From the NCBI RefSeq assembly GCF_003612555.1, contig NZ_RAZF01000026.1, positions 1 through 42,527 on the forward strand: a DNA stretch of 42,527 bases, given 5' to 3'. Within the stretch, counting starts at the first letter, position 1. Every line of letters starts with the position of its first letter. This stretch comes from Acutalibacter sp. 1XD8-33. Its GTDB lineage: Bacteria; Bacillota; Clostridia; Oscillospirales; Acutalibacteraceae. The position numbers were made by a program, and so were the translations under genes. This document shows, piece by piece, positions 1 through 35,626 of the stretch. A model generated the notes under the pieces. That model was not told the origin of the DNA and searched no databases. It worked only from the letters and a program-made list of their open reading frames with translations.

Positions 1-1
1 A

Positions 2-445
2 AAGAAAAACAGCGAAAAGCCCGTTCGCATTCACCATCATATCATCATGAACGGCGGACTTGATCGGGACGCGGTGGAAGAGTTGTGGCGCAAGCGAAAG
101 CGCAAGGGGCAGAAAAAGGGCGACCGAATCGGCTATTGCAACGCCGACCGTCTGCAAGCAAGCGACGACGGCATTGCCGCCCTTTGCAATTACCTTGTCA
201 AACAGGCTGGCGGGAAAAAGCGGTGGACATCTTCACACAATTTGGAGCGGCCCACAAGCCGAACGAACGACGGCAAGTACAATCGGCGGCAGATTGAGAA
301 ATGGGCGCGGGAGCGTCCGGGCCGGGAGTTTTGGGAAAAGAAATACCCCGGCTGGACCCTGACAGACAGCGATTACGGGGTTCAGTACGAATATAACGAT
401 TACACAGGCTGGTCAATCTATCTGAAATTGCGAAAGAAAGAATAG
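2..445 (+). CDS. HUH-type rolling-circle replication initiator (5' truncated)
   Basis: The reading frame is open from the window edge, so the N-terminus is missing; 147 codons are visible. Visible residues 9-16 read RIHHHIIM, which contains a metal-binding HUH-type motif. A candidate catalytic tyrosine follows in LCNYLVKQ (visible residue 64), with a lysine three residues on, as in Y-x-x-K motifs of HUH endonucleases. NADRLQ and the basic SSHNLERP stretch are typical of Rep proteins that nick an origin strand and start rolling-circle replication. The family call rests on motif order, not on a database match. It heads a dense + strand early operon. An ATG at 47 is in frame but lies downstream of the HUH motif, so it is not the true start. 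Confidence 0.72.
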   Translation, partial: KKNSEKPVRIHHHIIMNGGLDRDAVEELWRKRKRKGQKKGDRIGYCNADRLQASDDGIAALCNYLVKQAGGKKRWTSSHNLERPTSRTNDGKYNRRQIEKWARERPGREFWEKKYPGWTLTDSDYGVQYEYNDYTGWSIYLKLRKKE

Positions 446-2562: not shown

Positions 2563-3162
2563 ATGCAGATCGACAAGCGGCGTGCGGCCTTGCAGTATCA
2601 AAACAAGGTCAACAACGCGCAGGGGCATTTTTTCGAGGGGGCCATAAAAGCCGCGTGCGCCCTGTATTCGGAGCGGGAGCGGGCCGACGTGGACAAGACC
2701 CCCGAACCGTTCCGCGTCATGGAGAAAGGCCGCGACGGGATTTTCAAGGGGCGGTTCACAGCCCGCGCCCAGCCGGACTTTCAAGGAACCCTTGCGGGCG
2801 GGCAGTCAATCGTCTTTGAAGCGAAGTACACAACGACCGACCGCATGAAACGGGACGTTCTGACAAAGGAACAGCAGGACGCGCTGGAACGTCACGCCGC
2901 CCGCGGTGCGCTTGCCGCGGTATGCGCCGGAATCGGCGACAAGTTCTTTTTCGTGCCGTGGCAAATATGGCGGGACATGAAACAGCTTTACGGGCGAAAG
3001 TACGTGACAGCGGCAGACCTTGAGCCGTGGCGGGTGCGGTTCAATGGCGCGGTTCTCTTTCTTGACTATATCCACGAAAGGAGCGGGAACAATGCAAAAG
3101 CAGAAACAGCACAAGCGGAAATTAACGGTTTGTGTCACGCCGCAAACGGCGTTCAACCTTGA
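2563..3162 (+). CDS. recU: RecU-type Holliday junction resolvase
   Basis: A 199-residue protein. RecU resolves four-way DNA junctions in Firmicutes and their phages by paired symmetric cuts. Visible family marks are GHFFEGAIKAAC near the N-terminus (Glu25) and the PD-(D/E)xK catalytic core, with PDF at 71-73 and EAK at 86-88. A later segment, GDKFFFVPW, matches the beta strand typical of RecU. The tail from about residue 172 looks non-conserved and overlaps the next gene by 71 bases, so translation may be extended by an ancestral stop loss. It probably processes recombination or replication intermediates before packaging. Confidence 0.85.
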   Translation: MQIDKRRAALQYQNKVNNAQGHFFEGAIKAACALYSERERADVDKTPEPFRVMEKGRDGIFKGRFTARAQPDFQGTLAGGQSIVFEAKYTTTDRMKRDVLTKEQQDALERHAARGALAAVCAGIGDKFFFVPWQIWRDMKQLYGRKYVTAADLEPWRVRFNGAVLFLDYIHERSGNNAKAETAQAEINGLCHAANGVQP

Positions 3163-3262
3163 ACGGCTTATGCAGATCAGCGGGCAGAAAACGCCGGGCC
3201 GGGTGGTTGACAAGCTGGTTCGGGAGAAAATGCTGGCGTTAAGGGGCCGCGGGGAGGAATAA
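3092..3262 (+). CDS. Small basic protein, RHH-like
   Basis: A 56-residue protein starting at an ATG preceded by AAAGGAG. It overlaps the 3' end of recU by 71 bases in another frame. The sequence is very basic at the N-terminus (MQKQKQHKRK), followed by a short beta-like stretch (LTVCVT) and two predicted helices (FNLERLMQIS, GRVVDKLVREKM). This arrangement resembles ribbon-helix-helix DNA-binding or antitoxin-like proteins. No partner toxin is adjacent. The good ribosome binding site and tight spacing to the next gene (3 bases) support it being real. Confidence 0.65.
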   Translation: MQKQKQHKRKLTVCVTPQTAFNLERLMQISGQKTPGRVVDKLVREKMLALRGRGEE

Positions 3263-3265
3263 GCC

Positions 3266-3952
3266 GTGTTTGACCTGAACCGCCTTTATAACTCTGATTG
3301 CATGGAAGCAATGAAAGAAATACCCGACAAATTCTTTCAGCTTGCTATATGTGACCCGCCTTATGGTATCGGGCATGACGGACAGCGCAAGCGGGTACAT
3401 AACAACGTGAAGCACAACCGCAAGTTTCACGCCCGCAAGGGCTGGGACAGAGAAACGCCGCCGCCTGAATACTTCCGCGAACTGGAACGGGTTTCGGAAA
3501 ATCAAATAATTTTCGGCGGGAATTACTTTGTCCCCATGCTGAACCGCGGGACAAAGGGCTGGGTGGTTTGGGACAAGGGCCAGCACGGGTTATCAATGAG
3601 CGATTGCGAACTTGCCTATTCGTCCTTTGACTGTCCGACACGGGTTGTTGTTATCAATCGGGCTGAACTGCAACGGGACGGGGACACCATACACCCGACA
3701 CAAAAGCCCGTCCGCCTGTATGAATGGATATTGCGAAACTATGCCCGCCCCGGCGACAGAATCCTTGACACACACGCAGGGAGCGCGTCAAGCCTGATTG
3801 CGTGCTGGCGGCAGGGGTTCGAGTTCGTCGGCTTTGAGATTGACCGCGACTATTACAAGAAAGCGTCGGAGCGGTTAGCGGCTGAAATGGCGCAAATTCG
3901 CCTTTGGGACTATGACGCACAAACAAAGATCGAAACGGAGGAATCAACATGA
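3266..3952 (+). CDS. DNA N4-cytosine/N6-adenine methyltransferase
   Basis: A 228-residue protein from a GTG behind GGAGGAA. The catalytic motif DPPYG is at residues 30-34, ahead of the SAM-binding region. Motif I-like LDTHAGSASS and the TQKP motif lie in the C-terminal half, which is the beta-type motif order of amino-methyltransferases. These enzymes transfer a methyl group to adenine N6 or cytosine N4 in double-stranded DNA. No cognate restriction enzyme is nearby, so it is an orphan phage methylase that could protect phage DNA from host restriction. It overlaps the next gene by ATGA. Confidence 0.9.
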   Translation: MFDLNRLYNSDCMEAMKEIPDKFFQLAICDPPYGIGHDGQRKRVHNNVKHNRKFHARKGWDRETPPPEYFRELERVSENQIIFGGNYFVPMLNRGTKGWVVWDKGQHGLSMSDCELAYSSFDCPTRVVVINRAELQRDGDTIHPTQKPVRLYEWILRNYARPGDRILDTHAGSASSLIACWRQGFEFVGFEIDRDYYKKASERLAAEMAQIRLWDYDAQTKIETEEST

Positions 3953-4245
3953 GAGCGGGAGCAATTCTAATTGTCGTCTATTGGGCGATATTCACGGTGA
4001 AAAGGCACTTCACGCCGCGCCTGACAGCGGCTATAAAGGCGAACACGTATGACCTGAACAGGAATGACCCGGAAGCAAAGCGGGCCGCACAGCGCAAGCG
4101 TGGGCCGCTTACGGCGGCAAAATGGGCCTTGCGTGCAACGGGGTGGTTTGAAAATATCGTGATTGCCCTTGTTATGGCATGGCTTGTGTTCATCGTCGGC
4201 GCGGTGCTGACTGGAACCGTCGTCGTATTTGGGAAACCGCTGTAA
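3949..4245 (+). CDS. Small membrane protein
   Basis: A 98-residue protein with start ATG overlapping the methyltransferase stop and a GGAGG site. One hydrophobic stretch is at the extreme N-terminus (AILIVVYWAIF). A second long one is near the C-terminus (IVIALVMAWLVFIVGAVL and onward), and a basic segment lies between. Two membrane segments are likely, with the basic loop inside the cell by the positive-inside rule. No conserved motif was recognised. It sits in the early operon, so a structural role is unlikely. Confidence 0.65.
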   Translation: MRAGAILIVVYWAIFTVKRHFTPRLTAAIKANTYDLNRNDPEAKRAAQRKRGPLTAAKWALRATGWFENIVIALVMAWLVFIVGAVLTGTVVVFGKPL

Positions 4246-30881: not shown

Positions 30882-31766
30882 ATGCCAGAGGAAACGACAA
30901 AAAAATTCGGAACTATCGTAACCGACGTGGGGACCATGCGAACCCGCGAAGCGGTGTTGGAGGGTAAAAAAATCAACCTGACAACCCTTGCCGTCGGCGA
31001 CGGCGGCGGGGCCTATTACGTGCCGTCGGCAGATATGCAGGGCCTAAAAAATGAAACTTGGCGCGGGGACGTGTCCAGCGTGACCGTCAACCCTGATTCC
31101 CCGAACATGATTGACGTTATAGCGGTTATCCCCTCCGACGTGGGCGGGTTCACTATCCGCGAAATGGCGGTTCTGGACGACGGCGAATACACGATTGCCA
31201 TTTGCAACACGCCGGACACGGAAAAAGTCATAATTACCAGCGGCGCGGCGGGCGAAGTTGAAGTGACAATGCACATCGAGTTTTCAAACACGGGAATTAT
31301 TACGTTCATCGTTGACCCCTACGCCCTGACCGCGACGAAAAAGGACATTCAGGAACACAACGCCGCGCAGACGGCCCATGAAGCAAAGTTCGAGCAGAAA
31401 GCGGACGTTACCGACCTGAACGCCCATGTAAACAACAGCGATATTCACGTGAACCCCACCACAATGGGAAACTATGACACGGCTATTTCCGGCCTGATCG
31501 AGCATACAGAGGACGCAGACATTCACGTTTCGGCGGAAGAAAAGGCCGCATGGAGCGCGGCGGTTGAAACAGCGGCAAAGGCGGCAGAGGACGCGGCGCA
31601 AGCCCTGAATCTTGCCGCGGGCCTTGAAAGCCGCATTGCCCGTGTGGAAGATGGACTTTTCAATAACATTACCGGGAACCCGTTTCTTGTGTCTTTTGAT
31701 TCCCTTGACGGAATCATTCTGACTAAGGGTATTTGGAACGCGGAACGGCAGAGAATCGAATGTTGA
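30882..31766 (+). CDS. Tail fibre/collar protein H N-terminal type
   Basis: A 294-residue protein. KKFGTIVTDVGTMRTREAVL and NLTTLAVGDGGGAYYVP are the P2 gpH/DUF3751 tail-collar module that anchors fibres. The remainder has helical linker repeats with NNSDIHV and DADIHVSAEEKAAW motifs common in gut phage fibres. It ends early, without a receptor-binding tip. The adjoining DGR target probably provides the binding domain. Confidence 0.85.
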   Translation: MPEETTKKFGTIVTDVGTMRTREAVLEGKKINLTTLAVGDGGGAYYVPSADMQGLKNETWRGDVSSVTVNPDSPNMIDVIAVIPSDVGGFTIREMAVLDDGEYTIAICNTPDTEKVIITSGAAGEVEVTMHIEFSNTGIITFIVDPYALTATKKDIQEHNAAQTAHEAKFEQKADVTDLNAHVNNSDIHVNPTTMGNYDTAISGLIEHTEDADIHVSAEEKAAWSAAVETAAKAAEDAAQALNLAAGLESRIARVEDGLFNNITGNPFLVSFDSLDGIILTKGIWNAERQRIEC

Positions 31767-31990
31767 CGGAATATGCTTGCACACGCCGGGAACTGTCCTG
31801 CATAATTGGGAACCTGTTTACAGAAATTGAACCGCCTTGCGAACGGTGCGGGGCCGCTGACGTGCTGACGATCAGCGGGACAACCTACACCGGGGCGCGG
31901 GCGGTTCTTACTGTCACAGAACACGGGTTCACGTTTGACGGGAACCCGGCGGAGGTTGCGCGAATCAGGGAAAGGCGGTGTTTGAAATGA
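31760..31990 (+). CDS. Small Cys-containing protein upstream of avd
   Basis: A 76-residue protein whose ATG overlaps the fibre gene stop. It contains CERCG and alternating strands (ADVLTISGTTYTGARAVLTV). No family is recognised. It overlaps the avd start by four bases, so it is co-translated with the DGR. It could be a fibre chaperone or a small accessory, but neither is shown. Confidence 0.6.
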   Translation: MLTEYACTRRELSCIIGNLFTEIEPPCERCGAADVLTISGTTYTGARAVLTVTEHGFTFDGNPAEVARIRERRCLK

Positions 31991-32418
31991 ACCCGCCGCC
32001 GAAACAAGCTGAACAAAGCGAATTTACCATAATCACAAAGGCGAAAGACCTTGTAAAGCATACATTCCGAATGACGAATGACAGGCGTTTTCCGAAAAAG
32101 TATCGCTTTACTATTGTGAACCGATTACACGACCTGACGATTGATATTTTCCAGCATATACAGGAAGCAAACGAACTTGACCTTGCCGACCTGCAAGAGT
32201 TCCGGGAACGAAGATACGAACAGAAAAAGGCTTTGACAAAATGCAAGACAGTCCTTTTTCTGATTGAACTTTCCCTTGAACTGGAACTTATTTCAAACGA
32301 TCAATGCGCCGCATGGACAAAAGCCGTTTTGGACGTTAAGTACATGACGGCGAAGTGGCGCAAGCAAGATCAGCAGAGGGCGGCAACTATGCAGAGAGGG
32401 ACCCCGGCGCGGCGATAA
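31987..32418 (+). CDS. avd: DGR accessory protein Avd (four-helix bundle)
   Basis: A 143-residue protein. ATG 31987 has AAAGGCGG eight bases upstream; a GTG at 31978 would add three residues. The protein is fully helical and basic (AKDLVKHTFRMTNDRRFPKK, RLHDLTIDIFQHI, FRERRYEQKKALTKCKTVLF, KYMTAKWRKQDQQ), the layout of the four-helix bundle/Avd family. Avd forms a pentamer that binds the DGR reverse transcriptase and the template RNA and is needed for mutagenic cDNA synthesis. Its position immediately before TR and RT fits the Bordetella phage order. Confidence 0.88.
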   Translation: MNPPPKQAEQSEFTIITKAKDLVKHTFRMTNDRRFPKKYRFTIVNRLHDLTIDIFQHIQEANELDLADLQEFRERRYEQKKALTKCKTVLFLIELSLELELISNDQCAAWTKAVLDVKYMTAKWRKQDQQRAATMQRGTPARR

Positions 32419-32433
32419 AGCCCGCCGGGTTTT
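32403..32433 (+). terminator. Terminator-like hairpin between avd and TR
   Basis: CCCGGCG / CGCCGGG with inner GGC/GCC surround a GATAAA loop and are followed by TTTTCTTT. It overlaps the last avd codons and lies just 20 bases before the TR. It could separate avd mRNA from template RNA, or be the 5' structure of the template RNA. Confidence 0.55.
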
Positions 32434-32452
32434 CTTTGGGGTATGCCTTGTA

Positions 32453-32547
32453 GCGTCCAACTCGTACAACGTCCGCAACGTCAATTCCTCCGGCGCGATG
32501 AACTGGAACAACGCGTACAACGGCAACAGGGGCGTTCGCCCGCTTTG
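32453..32547 (+). repeat. DGR template repeat (TR)
   Basis: 95 bases matching 34571-34665 without gaps. All 15 differences are at A in this copy, which marks it as the template. It is rich in AAC codons when read in the target frame, the usual TR design. Its last 20 bases (GGGGCGTTCGCCCGCTTTG region) contain no A and are identical in both copies, serving as the initiation of mutagenic homing element. The match ends sharply on both sides. Confidence 0.95.
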
Positions 32548-32783
32548 GTGGATTTCCGCGATTGAGTAAGCCAAAAGCCGAAAACAGAGGCCCACTATCA
32601 AAGGAAGGTGTATCCCTCCGCCGCAGTGAGAGGGCGGCGGTAAATACAAGATTGGTGAAGCAAGGCCCACGGGAACCAGCTTCCGCCCCGCCGCGGGCGC
32701 GTGGCGGGGTCCGATGATAAAGCATTGACGGGGTGGGAAACGCCCTGCAAGGCGGATTCTATACACGGCAAGGAGTTTTTATA
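32548..32783 (+). ncRNA. Structured spacer RNA between TR and RT (Sp-like)
   Basis: No gene is found in this 236-base stretch. It contains two perfect 7-bp hairpins, CCGCCGC/GCGGCGG (32618-32640) and CCCCGCC/GGCGGGG (32686-32709). In the studied Bordetella phage DGR, the spacer downstream of the TR folds and primes cDNA synthesis, so an equivalent role is likely. The first 22 bases continue the TR reading frame to a stop (WWISAIE). Confidence 0.6.
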
Positions 32784-33908
32784 ATGACAGACGCAGATTT
32801 TACGCGGGTATATGATTTCGGAAACCTGTATGCGGGGTTCCTGAAAGCCCGCAGAGGTAAAAGGGGCAAAGCCAGCGTCGCAAAGTTTGAAGCGAATTTG
32901 CTGGAAGCAATTTGCCTACTTTCGGAAATGCTGAAAAACAGGACGTATAAACCGTCTGACTATTTCGTTTTTCGGGTGTACGAACCGAAAGAGCGCGTCG
33001 TTATGACAAACGCGTTCAAAGATAAAGTCGTTCAGCATTCCCTATGCGATAACATACTTGAACCAGCATTTTCCCGCGCCTTTATCCGGGACAACTACGC
33101 TTCACAGCGCGGGCGCGGGACGCATGACGGCCTATACAGGCTGGAAGAGTTCATGCGGTCCTATTATTTTTCACACAAGGCAAAGGCGGAGCGGGAGGGC
33201 CGGGAGGAGGGGTTGTCGCGGCCCGCCCCGCAAGCCGCCGATTACGCCGACGGCTGGGTTCTCAAATGCGACATATCGAAGTATTTCTATTCGATTCAGC
33301 ATGAACCGTTAAAACAGATGGTACGGCAGTACGTCAAAAGCCCCGGCGTTCTATGGCTTGTCGATATGATTATTGACAGTACGGAGAATCCGGGCGTTCC
33401 GATTGGAAATCAAACTTCACAATGGTTCGCGGTCATGTACCTTTCGGGGTTAGATCATTTCATCAAGGAAAAGCTGGGTATTCGCTATTATGGGCGGTAT
33501 ATGGACGACTTTTACTTGATACATGAGGACAAGACGTACTTGCAGTATTGCCGCCGCGAAATAGAACGGTATGTTGCCCGGCTGGGGCTGACCTTGAACA
33601 ACAAAACGAACATCTTTCCTTTGCGGAACGGTATTGACTTTTTAGGGTTTCATTCATACCTGACCGACAGCGGCAAAGTGATTCGGAAAGTAAGGAGGGC
33701 AAGCAAGAGCAATGAACAACGGAAGCTAAAGAAACAGCGGGCTTTGCTGGACCGCGGAAAAATCACCATGCGGGAGATTAAACAATCCTACGGAAGCTGG
33801 CGGAGCCACGCGGAAAAGGGGAATTGCTATCACCTTATCCGCGAAATGGACCAACTGTATAAAACCCTATTTGAAGAAAAACTTTCAGAAAAGGAGTGTG
33901 TCACATAA
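32784..33908 (+). CDS. DGR reverse transcriptase
   Basis: A 374-residue protein from ATG 32784 with AAGGAG. RT palm motifs are in order: LKCDISKYFYSI (motif A, Asp163), GVPIGNQTSQWFAV (motif B, 205-217) and YYGRYMDDFYLI (YMDD at 239-242). The GNxTSQ form of motif B is typical of DGR and group II-like RTs, and there is no maturase or endonuclease domain. It copies TR RNA into cDNA with errors at A and sends it to the VR. The stop overlaps the target ATG by one base, so enzyme and target are co-translated. Confidence 0.94.
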   Translation: MTDADFTRVYDFGNLYAGFLKARRGKRGKASVAKFEANLLEAICLLSEMLKNRTYKPSDYFVFRVYEPKERVVMTNAFKDKVVQHSLCDNILEPAFSRAFIRDNYASQRGRGTHDGLYRLEEFMRSYYFSHKAKAEREGREEGLSRPAPQAADYADGWVLKCDISKYFYSIQHEPLKQMVRQYVKSPGVLWLVDMIIDSTENPGVPIGNQTSQWFAVMYLSGLDHFIKEKLGIRYYGRYMDDFYLIHEDKTYLQYCRREIERYVARLGLTLNNKTNIFPLRNGIDFLGFHSYLTDSGKVIRKVRRASKSNEQRKLKKQRALLDRGKITMREIKQSYGSWRSHAEKGNCYHLIREMDQLYKTLFEEKLSEKECVT

Positions 33909-35626
33909 TGGCAAAAGCTTTAAGTTCTCTTGCCGTCGGTACATTGGTAAAGGACACGGGAACGCTTTACAATGGCAAGCCCATTGTCTGGAAGATTGCC
34001 GACAAGGGCCACGCGGGTTATCCTGCAAATTCCGTGACGCTGATTACAGAACGCATTATTTCGCTGAAATGCTTTGACGCTATCGAATCGGGCAACAGCG
34101 ACAGCAACCGCCGATCTTACGGCAATAACCGCTGGATTTACTCGAATATCCGGCGGTGGCTGAACAGTCAAGCGGCGGCGGGCAAATGGTACGCCGCACA
34201 GCACAGCGCAGACGCGCCCCCGTCAAACGCTAACGTATGGAGCAACTACAACGAATACGACGGGGAAGCGGGATTTCTTGCGGGGTTCTCGGCAAGCTTT
34301 GTCGCCGCCTTGCTTACTACAACGCATACCGTCGGCAAAGCGTCGGTGGACGGCGGCGGAACTGAAACTTGCACCGACAAAATCTTTTTTGCGTCGTCAA
34401 CGGAAGTCGGCTTGACGGGCGACGTTGTATGCGGGAGCAAGCTGGCCCTGTTCACGGACGACGCTTCCAGACGGGCGAAACCCACGGCGGAATGTGTGTC
34501 GAAAAGTGAGTACACAAACAGCAGTTTCAACACAAATTCGTTTTGGTACTACTGGCTTTGCGACGCTTACGCGTCCTTCTCGTACCTCGTCCGCAGCGTC
34601 CATTCCTCCGGCGCGTTGGACTGGCACTACGCGTGCGGCGGCGGCAGGGGCGTTCGCCCGCTTTGTAATTTGTTATCTTCAATCTTGGTATCTGATTCCC
34701 CGGATTCCGACGGCGCATATACAATCATTTGGAATCGCGCCCCCAGCACGCCGCCCAGCCTGACGGTTCCGACGACGGTTCGCGGCGGGCAAACCCTGAC
34801 CGTAACGTGGGGGACTTCCACGGACGCGGACGGCAATTTGTCCGGGTACATTTTGGAGCGGCAGAACAACGGCGGCGCGTGGAAACAGCTTTACAAAGGT
34901 ATCAATAAAACCTATACCGACACGATCACGCAGGGCTGGGAAAGCGTCGCATACAGGGTTAAAGCCTACGACAGCGCGGGCGCAGAATCAGCATACAGCA
35001 CCAGCCCGACCCGAACCGTCATAAACAACACGCCGCCCACAATCAGCGGGAACAACGGCGATCTTGGCACGAAAACCGGGGCGTTCAATCAGGCTTACAC
35101 AGTCACAGACCCGGACAGCGGGCAAACCCTGACCGTCACGGAAAAGATCGACAACACGGTGAAGCGGACCTATACCGCGACCAGCGGGCAGAACTATTCG
35201 TTCAGCGTCACGGCGGCGGAATGGGTGAAGCTTGCCAACGGGTCCCATACCCTGACAATCGCCGCCGCGGATAACGTCGGCGGAACAGCCACCCGAACCT
35301 TTACGTTCACAAAGAACGAAACCGAAATCGAAATGACGCTGGCAACCCCGCTTTCTTCCGACGACGCAGTTACAAAGGCAATCATGAGCGTTACGCGGCA
35401 GATTCCGACGGGGGCAACCTTTACCGTCGAAGTCTGCAACAATGCCTTTGACGCGTCGCCCACGTGGGAGGACGTGACACAGGCCGTCACAAGTGGAAAC
35501 AAGTTCTTTTTGAGCAATACCACAAAGACGGCGGCGAAATGGGGGTTCAATCTCCGAATCAAGGTCAAGAGAAACGGGGCAACGGGCGATTGCTACATTG
35601 TTTCGGCAGGGGGGAATTTTGAATGA
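33908..35626 (+). CDS. DGR target: tail-fibre receptor-binding protein
   Basis: A 572-residue protein. Residues about 1-285 resemble the DUF6273/C-type-lectin-like fold used as DGR target in gut phages (SLAVGTLVKD, SYGNNRWIYSNIRRWLNS, FWYYWLCDAY). The VR covers residues 222-253. The rest is modular: an Fn3-like domain (about 285-375, YILERQNNGGAWKQLYKG), an Ig-like domain (about 380-475, FTFTKN end), and a terminal beta domain. It probably binds host surface ligands. Internal placement of the VR is unusual, since most DGR targets carry it at the C-terminus. Confidence 0.9.
   Translation: MAKALSSLAVGTLVKDTGTLYNGKPIVWKIADKGHAGYPANSVTLITERIISLKCFDAIESGNSDSNRRSYGNNRWIYSNIRRWLNSQAAAGKWYAAQHSADAPPSNANVWSNYNEYDGEAGFLAGFSASFVAALLTTTHTVGKASVDGGGTETCTDKIFFASSTEVGLTGDVVCGSKLALFTDDASRRAKPTAECVSKSEYTNSSFNTNSFWYYWLCDAYASFSYLVRSVHSSGALDWHYACGGGRGVRPLCNLLSSILVSDSPDSDGAYTIIWNRAPSTPPSLTVPTTVRGGQTLTVTWGTSTDADGNLSGYILERQNNGGAWKQLYKGINKTYTDTITQGWESVAYRVKAYDSAGAESAYSTSPTRTVINNTPPTISGNNGDLGTKTGAFNQAYTVTDPDSGQTLTVTEKIDNTVKRTYTATSGQNYSFSVTAAEWVKLANGSHTLTIAAADNVGGTATRTFTFTKNETEIEMTLATPLSSDDAVTKAIMSVTRQIPTGATFTVEVCNNAFDASPTWEDVTQAVTSGNKFFLSNTTKTAAKWGFNLRIKVKRNGATGDCYIVSAGGNFE
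34571..34665 (+). repeat. DGR variable repeat (VR)
   Basis: Aligned to the TR, 15 of 22 template A positions differ and 0 of 73 other positions differ. Eleven codons are changed: residues 224, 227, 230, 232, 237, 238, 240, 241, 243, 244 and 246. Seven of these derive from single or double changes of AAC. The fixed 3' end with GGGCGTTCGCCC is the homing element. This is strong evidence of past rounds of mutagenic retrohoming. Confidence 0.95.

What the first reader, a model, noticed from the sequence alone, without database searches (positions are those of the whole stretch)
31987..34665. Complete diversity-generating retroelement in the tail-fibre region
avd, TR, spacer, RT and VR occur in order. 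In the 95-nt TR/VR match, 15 of 22 template adenines differ and none of 73 other positions does. The RT has YMDD and GNxTSQ motifs. This is direct sequence evidence of adenine-specific mutagenesis aimed at a receptor-binding protein, so the phage can probably switch host or ligand.
Basis: partly seen in the sequence, partly recalled or inferred. Interest (0 to 1): 0.9.

Follow-up and report, generated by a model that had tools for sequence, protein, structure and literature searches.

The report
Recently active phage gene-mutating retroelement
A phage genome in a bacterial assembly carries a complete, recently active machine that rewrites one patch of a probable surface-binding phage protein, and in sister phages the same template also rewrites a second protein encoded among DNA-replication genes; the machine is of a known kind, but the DNA mark that seems to label its targets looks new.

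Summary
TR 32453-32547 and VR 34571-34665 differ at 15 of 22 template adenines and 0 of 73 other positions; Avd, RT and target are open and in order. It is a diversity-generating retroelement (DGR). Its lineage was recently active: relative L134 differs at 16 VR positions, all template adenines, but at 1 of 9,827 aligned positions outside VR, gaps not counted. The target has the architecture of a tentaclin, a family already published with such DGRs (PMC10743442). Host or ligand switching is untested.

Relatives fuse it to Lar, DUF3310 or NTP-pyrophosphohydrolase domains. Non-structural second targets are in print for other phages. (2) The hairpin BPP-1 needs after VR was not found; a linear TCTTGGTATCTG element with codon-level constraint follows most VRs, not TRs; I found no description of it. 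(3) The spacer RNA has a covarying fold.

The parts
31978..32418 (+). avd, accessory variability determinant (GTG 31978 or ATG 31987)
   Evidence: phrog_3206 'Avd protein of DGR' E 1.3e-30; Pfam and NCBIfam Avd models match below their cut-offs
32453..32547 (+). template repeat (TR), 22 adenines
   Evidence: identical in L003, L004, L005, L134, L135, L136
32547..32640 (+). spacer RNA part with five short conserved helices
   Evidence: alignment of 32 spacers, 97.3% of cells paired, 87 cells changed on both sides against 26.6 in shuffles; window coordinates
32784..33908 (+). DGR reverse transcriptase (374 aa; a GTG at 32733 would give 391 aa)
   Evidence: PF00078 E 2.3e-13, phrog_1423 E 9.7e-130, PDB match 8ub7
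33908..35626 (+). target gene, tentaclin-like (DUF6273 then FN3/Ig-like domains, 572 aa); its ATG overlaps the RT stop
   Evidence: PF19789 at residues 41-255; FN3 tandems by Foldseek; phrog_10993
34571..34665 (+). variable repeat (VR)
34683..34694 (+). linear element TCTTGGTATCTG downstream of VR, candidate target mark
   Evidence: exact here; codon-level constraint; frequency in VR and TR flanks
30882..31766 (+). tail-collar fibre protein gene upstream of the cassette (context)
   Evidence: PF12571 E 7.9e-42
1..445 (+). 3' part of a Rep gene at the contig start; in G007 the second target gene lies about 0.8 kb upstream of the matching point (context)

Best explanation
It is a complete and, in its lineage, recently active phage DGR in a myovirus genome with P2-like baseplate genes. 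Shown: an avd-TR-spacer-RT cassette next to a tentaclin-like gene, with almost purely adenine-directed divergence between TR and VR and between sister VRs. From established DGR biology: the avd-TR-spacer transcript is copied by RT and Avd with errors at adenines, and the cDNA replaces VR. Inferred: this gives phages with different versions of one patch on the DUF6273 domain, probably displayed on the virion to bind host or gut surfaces. Also inferred (about 0.6): the target is marked by a linear DNA element just 3' of VR in place of the BPP-1 hairpin, and such a mark lets the same template serve a second gene about 35 kb away in sister phages. The confidence below is for the DGR core, not for these inferences.
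For: TR/VR 15/22 A, 0/73 other. In 61 distinct TR/VR pairs of this layout 769 of 794 mismatches are on TR adenines. Window against L134: 16 VR differences, all at TR adenines; 1 in 9,827 aligned positions outside VR. 8 VRs: 22 variable columns, all template adenines. Second target, G057 against G056: 14 differences in 774 nt, all at TR adenines of VR2. Families. Spacer covariation. Element: exact in 43 and at least 10/12 in 55 of 66 VR flanks, at most 8/12 in 66 TR flanks. Codon permutation test: 6 of 220 tentaclin columns pass the family-wise threshold, 5 of them (257, 258, 260-262) just downstream of VR and one (252) in its last codons; 7 of 52 second-target columns pass, 4 (175, 178-180) downstream of VR2 and 3 inside it.
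Against: No reads or expression data, so activity in this host now is untested. Pfam and NCBIfam Avd models score below cut-off. The tentaclin model has pLDDT 55-66 over residues 221-250 and lower still at 61-70; the listed fold-search rows name no C-type lectin. The element is not universal: 11 of 66 VR flanks reach only 8-9 of 12; the second targets of nd4, Lelie and Toutatis lack it in the stretches fetched. 2 of 5 covariation measures do not clearly beat the shuffles.
Confidence: 0.92

Rival explanations
1. The cassette is a DGR but silent in this host; the VR difference is a trace of past diversification.
For: No activity data here. In PMC11792537 (passages) read-level variation at VR was seen in some but not all DGR phages sampled.
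Against: RT, Avd and target are open; L134 differs at 16 VR adenine positions but at 1 of 9,827 aligned positions elsewhere, which needs very recent activity in this lineage.
Confidence: 0.15
2. The target is a head-decoration or other surface protein, not a tail receptor-binding protein, so diversification tunes adherence to gut or cell surfaces.
For: PHROG label 'Hoc-like head decoration'; FN3-like chain; Baykov et al. list binding to intestinal or immune cells among their hypotheses (PMC10743442).
Against: The gene lies downstream of baseplate J, tail protein I and the tail-collar fibre gene; weak sequence match of residues 367-494 to a PDB 'Tail fiber protein' (31he, E 0.00044).
Confidence: 0.35
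3. The conserved bases after VR reflect codon preference, mRNA structure or shared ancestry, not a retrohoming mark.
For: They lie in coding sequence (I-L-V-S) of related domains; some targets lack them.
Against: Tentaclin columns 257 and 261 and second-target columns 175, 178, 179, 180 exceed the maximum of 300 within-sequence codon permutations; the favoured codons TCT and GTA are uncommon in tentaclins (0.10 and 0.19). A similar element is at 9 of 12 or better in 28 of 32 VR flanks of 19 loci of a second DGR group with another gene order (TR flanks there were printed, not scored, and no shuffled control was run). A VR-less DUF6273 gene on C10 uses other codons at this place, though a 10/12 match lies just 5' of it.
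Confidence: 0.3
4. The second target of sister phages is a small Mtd-like receptor-binding protein, as Baykov et al. proposed.
For: DUF6273 domain with VR near the 3' end and the authors' structural comparison (PMC10743442).
Against: Neighbours are replication and DNA-modification genes where they could be named (around the nd12 and Lelie genes the annotation names no function apart from an IS30 transposase near nd12's), and relatives fuse it to Lar, DUF3310 or NTP-pyrophosphohydrolase domains.
Confidence: 0.3

Closest known systems
Tentaclin DGRs of small gut myoviruses nd4 and nd12 (Baykov et al. 2023, PMC10743442; parts 1-4 of 6 read)
   Same: DUF6273 domain with VR in the 5' part, then Ig/FN3-like domains; tail-sheath phages; a second DUF6273-only target served by the same TR.
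   Different: Another phage (nd12 RT 60% identical). In the parts read the second target's place among replication genes is not discussed, its role is guessed to be Mtd-like, and no element after VR is described (figures are not held). They already noted the DUF3310 motif in nd12's second target.
BPP-1 DGR (PMC3240598, abstract and passages)
   Same: RT, Avd, TR and adenine-specific retrohoming into a phage gene.
   Different: BPP-1 needs a hairpin/cruciform after VR; here none was found and a linear element lies there. Target is tentaclin-like, not Mtd, and VR is internal.
[quoted passage not shown]
   Same: One template, one structural or tail target and one distal target near counter-defence genes.
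   Different: Quimbyviridae infect Bacteroidetes and express the second target from the opposite strand; in the present clade it is on the tentaclin's strand, near replication genes and fused in relatives to Lar, DUF3310 or NTP-pyrophosphohydrolase domains. Whether any of the four prophage species belongs to the present clade was not checked.

Membership tests
Diversity-generating retroelement | near-repeat pair differing at template adenines | tested here: met
   15/22 A, 0/73 other; 769 of 794 mismatches on A over 61 distinct pairs
Diversity-generating retroelement | DGR-type RT with YMDD and [IVL]GNxxSQ (motif recalled) | tested here: met
   translation
Diversity-generating retroelement | accessory Avd gene beside TR | tested here: met
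   phrog_3206 E 1.3e-30; NCBIfam and Pfam models below cut-off
Diversity-generating retroelement | VR of relatives varies only at template adenines | tested here: met
   22 of 95 columns variable in 8 VRs, all template adenines
Diversity-generating retroelement | RT-dependent retrohoming | not testable with these tools
   needs an RT-inactive mutant and sequencing
BPP-1-type DGR target site | GC-rich inverted repeat (7-10 bp stem, 4-nt loop) after VR | tested here: not met
   Perfect stems with loops of 3-8 nt, -5 to +60: 2 of 66 flanks reach 7 bp (one AT-rich sequence seen twice, 6-nt loop) against 1.1% of shuffles; 3 of 9 other DGRs looked at (L194, L196, L198) reach 8 bp. Window flank folds no better than shuffles (z 1.34)
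Tentaclin | N-terminal DUF6273/C-lec domain carrying VR, then Ig-like domains | tested here: met
   DUF6273 at residues 41-255, VR at 222-253, FN3/Ig-like after it; the C-lec fold itself rests on PMC10743442, not on my fold searches
Tentaclin | consensus of seven residues in the C-terminal Ig domain | not tested
   the consensus is in a figure that is not held
Tail receptor-binding protein | present on the virion tail and binds a host receptor | not testable with these tools
   only gene neighbourhood

The most novel reading that the evidence does not exclude
This DGR clade marks its targets with a sequence-specific linear DNA element rather than a hairpin. One template thereby addresses unlinked genes: a virion lectin-like protein (tentaclin) and an early, intracellular protein that diversifies binding to variable host or rival-phage molecules, perhaps defence proteins. 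The phage would run an antibody-like search both outside and inside the cell.
Probability: 0.4. Interest if true: 0.75.

Novelty: new variant of a known kind. Interest (0 to 1): 0.45.

Why it matters
The core is a well-documented kind. What would matter is (a) a simple, testable DNA mark that could explain how one template finds several genes without a hairpin, and (b) firmer grounds that phages hypermutate an intracellular early protein. The large DGR survey says its approach would not detect remote targets, with a median DGR contig of 9,584 bp (PMC8144416, passages); the median distance between the two genes here is about 24 kb, so this class is probably under-counted.

Tried and rejected
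One search, a scan tolerant of one template base at a time, was not a usable control: it fired in 63 (A), 5 (C), 53 (G) and 29 (T) of 81 loci. My likely explanation is that it also read VR as the template, where A-to-G changes show as G mismatches. I replaced it by a symmetric scan and the base table. Foldseek of the second-target model gave one match below E 0.001, an IgA peptidase, so I claim no fold from it. Rfam found nothing in the window at gathering thresholds. No repeat or complement longer than 8 nt links the element region to the avd-RT stretch. C44 of the own genome holds a short remnant resembling the second target's N-terminus, without VR.

Misses and dropped rows: records G035, G040, G044, G045 and G051 gave no second VR in the stretches fetched. 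Genomes G060 and G069 matched only through the tentaclin. L300 and L301 showed no VR2, L306 is short and frame-broken, L309 matched no TR of its genome. In G055 the 96% identical second target lies on another contig than the matching DGR. A1 used 20 second-target proteins, A2 18 tentaclins, A3 32 spacers, all chosen by me from those found; 5 of the 66 TR/VR pairs are duplicates.

I first took the early-module second target as unreported; two searches showed the general idea in print, so I lowered its novelty. Literature searches. Statements that I found nothing in print rest on these and on the passages named.
Full report
Observation. Avd 31978-32418, TR 32453-32547, RT 32784-33908 and target 33908-35626 are open and on the + strand. 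TR and VR (34571-34665) match without gaps over 95 nt; all 15 mismatches are among the 22 template adenines, none among the other 73 positions; the hypergeometric chance is 1.5e-12. The window is the whole of contig C22 of its assembly. A DNA search of that assembly with the TR region finds only itself and this VR.

What it is. The RT is nearest to DGR-type RTs (phrog_1423; best PDB sequence match 8ub7). Avd is recognised by its PHROG, though NCBIfam and Pfam models score below cut-off. The target has DUF6273 at residues 41-255, VR at 222-253 and FN3/Ig-like domains after it. It lies downstream of baseplate J, tail protein I and a tail-collar fibre gene, in a genome with sheath, portal, capsid and terminase genes: a myovirus with P2-like baseplate genes. 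That architecture is the published tentaclin (PMC10743442, parts 1-4 of 6 read).

Is it active? IMG/VR and public genomes hold close relatives with an identical TR. Their VRs carry 11 (L003), 9 (L004), 8 (L005), 13 (L134), 12 (L135) and 15 (L136) changes from TR, all on adenines. L134 and the window differ at 16 VR positions, all template adenines (the gapped alignment sees 10 of 20), against 1 difference in 9,827 aligned positions outside VR, gaps not counted. Over 8 VRs, one of them a truncated extra copy in G007 (L224), the variable columns are exactly the 22 adenine columns. More widely, 66 TR/VR pairs of this layout, 61 distinct, hold 794 mismatches, 769 on template adenines and 25 on other bases. 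It does not show activity in this host today.

A second target. The window's contig starts inside the next gene, a Rep gene, about 0.8 kb downstream of where that gene ends. No such gene was found elsewhere in the assembly except a remnant without VR, so whether this phage has it is unknown. The G057 and G056 genes differ at 14 of 774 positions, all 14 at template adenines in VR2; the two comparisons with G055 give 9 and 13 such differences plus 16 outside VR2 each. Of 15 IMG/VR records tested, 10 have a VR2 matching their own TR with at most two non-adenine mismatches; 5 gave none. Of 21 second-target loci in named genomes 15 do so at first test, with up to three non-adenine mismatches, and 6 do not; of those 6, L307 and L310 do with another TR of their genome (11 of 11 and 8 of 8 mismatches on adenines). 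In 29 same-record pairs (some the same phage from two collections, four without VR2) both genes are on one strand, 7.4 to 36 kb apart, median 24 kb.

Is the second target intracellular? Neighbours that could be named are a C5 methylase, Rep and RecU in G007; Pol III alpha, SSB and DnaC in nd4; methyltransferase, replication protein and antiterminator Q in Toutatis; helicase and methylase, or DnaC loader and MT-A70, elsewhere. Around the nd12 and Lelie genes the annotation names no function apart from an IS30 transposase. L299 and L310 end in an NTP-pyrophosphohydrolase domain; L309 and nd12 begin with DUF3310 and L307 with a Lar restriction-alleviation domain (L307 and L309 are read from a GTG with no stop between the domains). 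I read this as an early, cytoplasmic protein, against the Mtd-like guess of PMC10743442. The general idea of a non-structural second target near counter-defence genes is already in print (PMC8008677 and PMC12629997, passages).

How the target may be recognised. BPP-1 homing needs a hairpin after VR that its authors propose is a conserved requirement (PMC3240598). Here 2 of 66 VR flanks have a stem of 7 bp or more, one AT-rich sequence seen twice, against 1.1% of shuffles; of 9 other DGRs looked at, L194, L196 and L198 have 8-bp stems and 6 do not reach 7. Instead TCTTGGTATCTG lies 9 to 19 nt after VR: exact in 43 of 66 flanks and at least 10 of 12 in 55, while no TR flank exceeds 8 of 12. It follows VR2 at 10 of 12 or better in 21 of 29 flanks, not all independent; for L292 the VR2 end used was too early and a longer flank was scanned. 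A similar element is at 9 of 12 or better in 28 of 32 VR flanks of 19 loci of a second DGR group with another gene order, without a scored control. In a codon-permutation test on thinned alignments, 6 of 220 tentaclin columns pass the family-wise threshold: 257, 258 and 260-262 just after VR, and 252 in its last codons. Of 52 second-target columns 7 pass: 175 and 178-180 after VR2, and 149, 167 and 170 inside it. nd12 has the element after both VRs (12 and 10 of 12); the second targets of nd4, Lelie and Toutatis lack it in the stretches fetched. I take it as a probable cis-acting target mark; this is inference.

Template RNA. The spacer after TR keeps five short helices: 97.3% of cells paired, 87 cells changed on both sides against 26.6 in shuffles, slid controls at most 56.7% paired. 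Two further measures are weak (pairs with a change on both sides 9 against 7.4; further pair types 21 against 20.0), and the structure was derived from the same alignment.

Verdict. A confirmed DGR, recently active in its lineage, of a published kind. The linear mark and the fused early second target are the parts worth a specialist's time. Host or ligand switching is plausible and untested.

Noticed in passing
L132 (G000 C17:3000-16000, minus strand); RT match C17:7607-8569, DUF6273 C17:9709-10179: A second DGR in the same bacterial assembly: RT 29% identical to the window's, 130-nt TR/VR pair with 15 of 35 adenines changed and no other mismatch, target an 843-aa protein.
   Followed up: partly
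L224 (G007 C103:1-11931), ORF 2765-3682: A truncated extra copy of the tentaclin gene with its own VR (5 adenine changes from TR), lying between two recombinase-like ORFs.
   Followed up: partly
L208 and L136, 3' end of RT: In the D16-76 phage the RT frame ends before the target starts and the TR-VR spacing is 2 bp shorter, so the RT-target overlap seen in the window is lost.
   Followed up: no
L133 (G000 C10:49000-57000), minus strand, 3687-4232: A partial DUF6273 gene that gave no hit to this TR and has different codons at the element position.
   Followed up: partly
L050-L078 and L161-L186 (19 loci looked at): A second DGR group with one or two VRs upstream of TR and RT; an ATCT-rich stretch follows most of its VRs and a GTGG..CCAC stretch follows many of its TRs.
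   Followed up: partly
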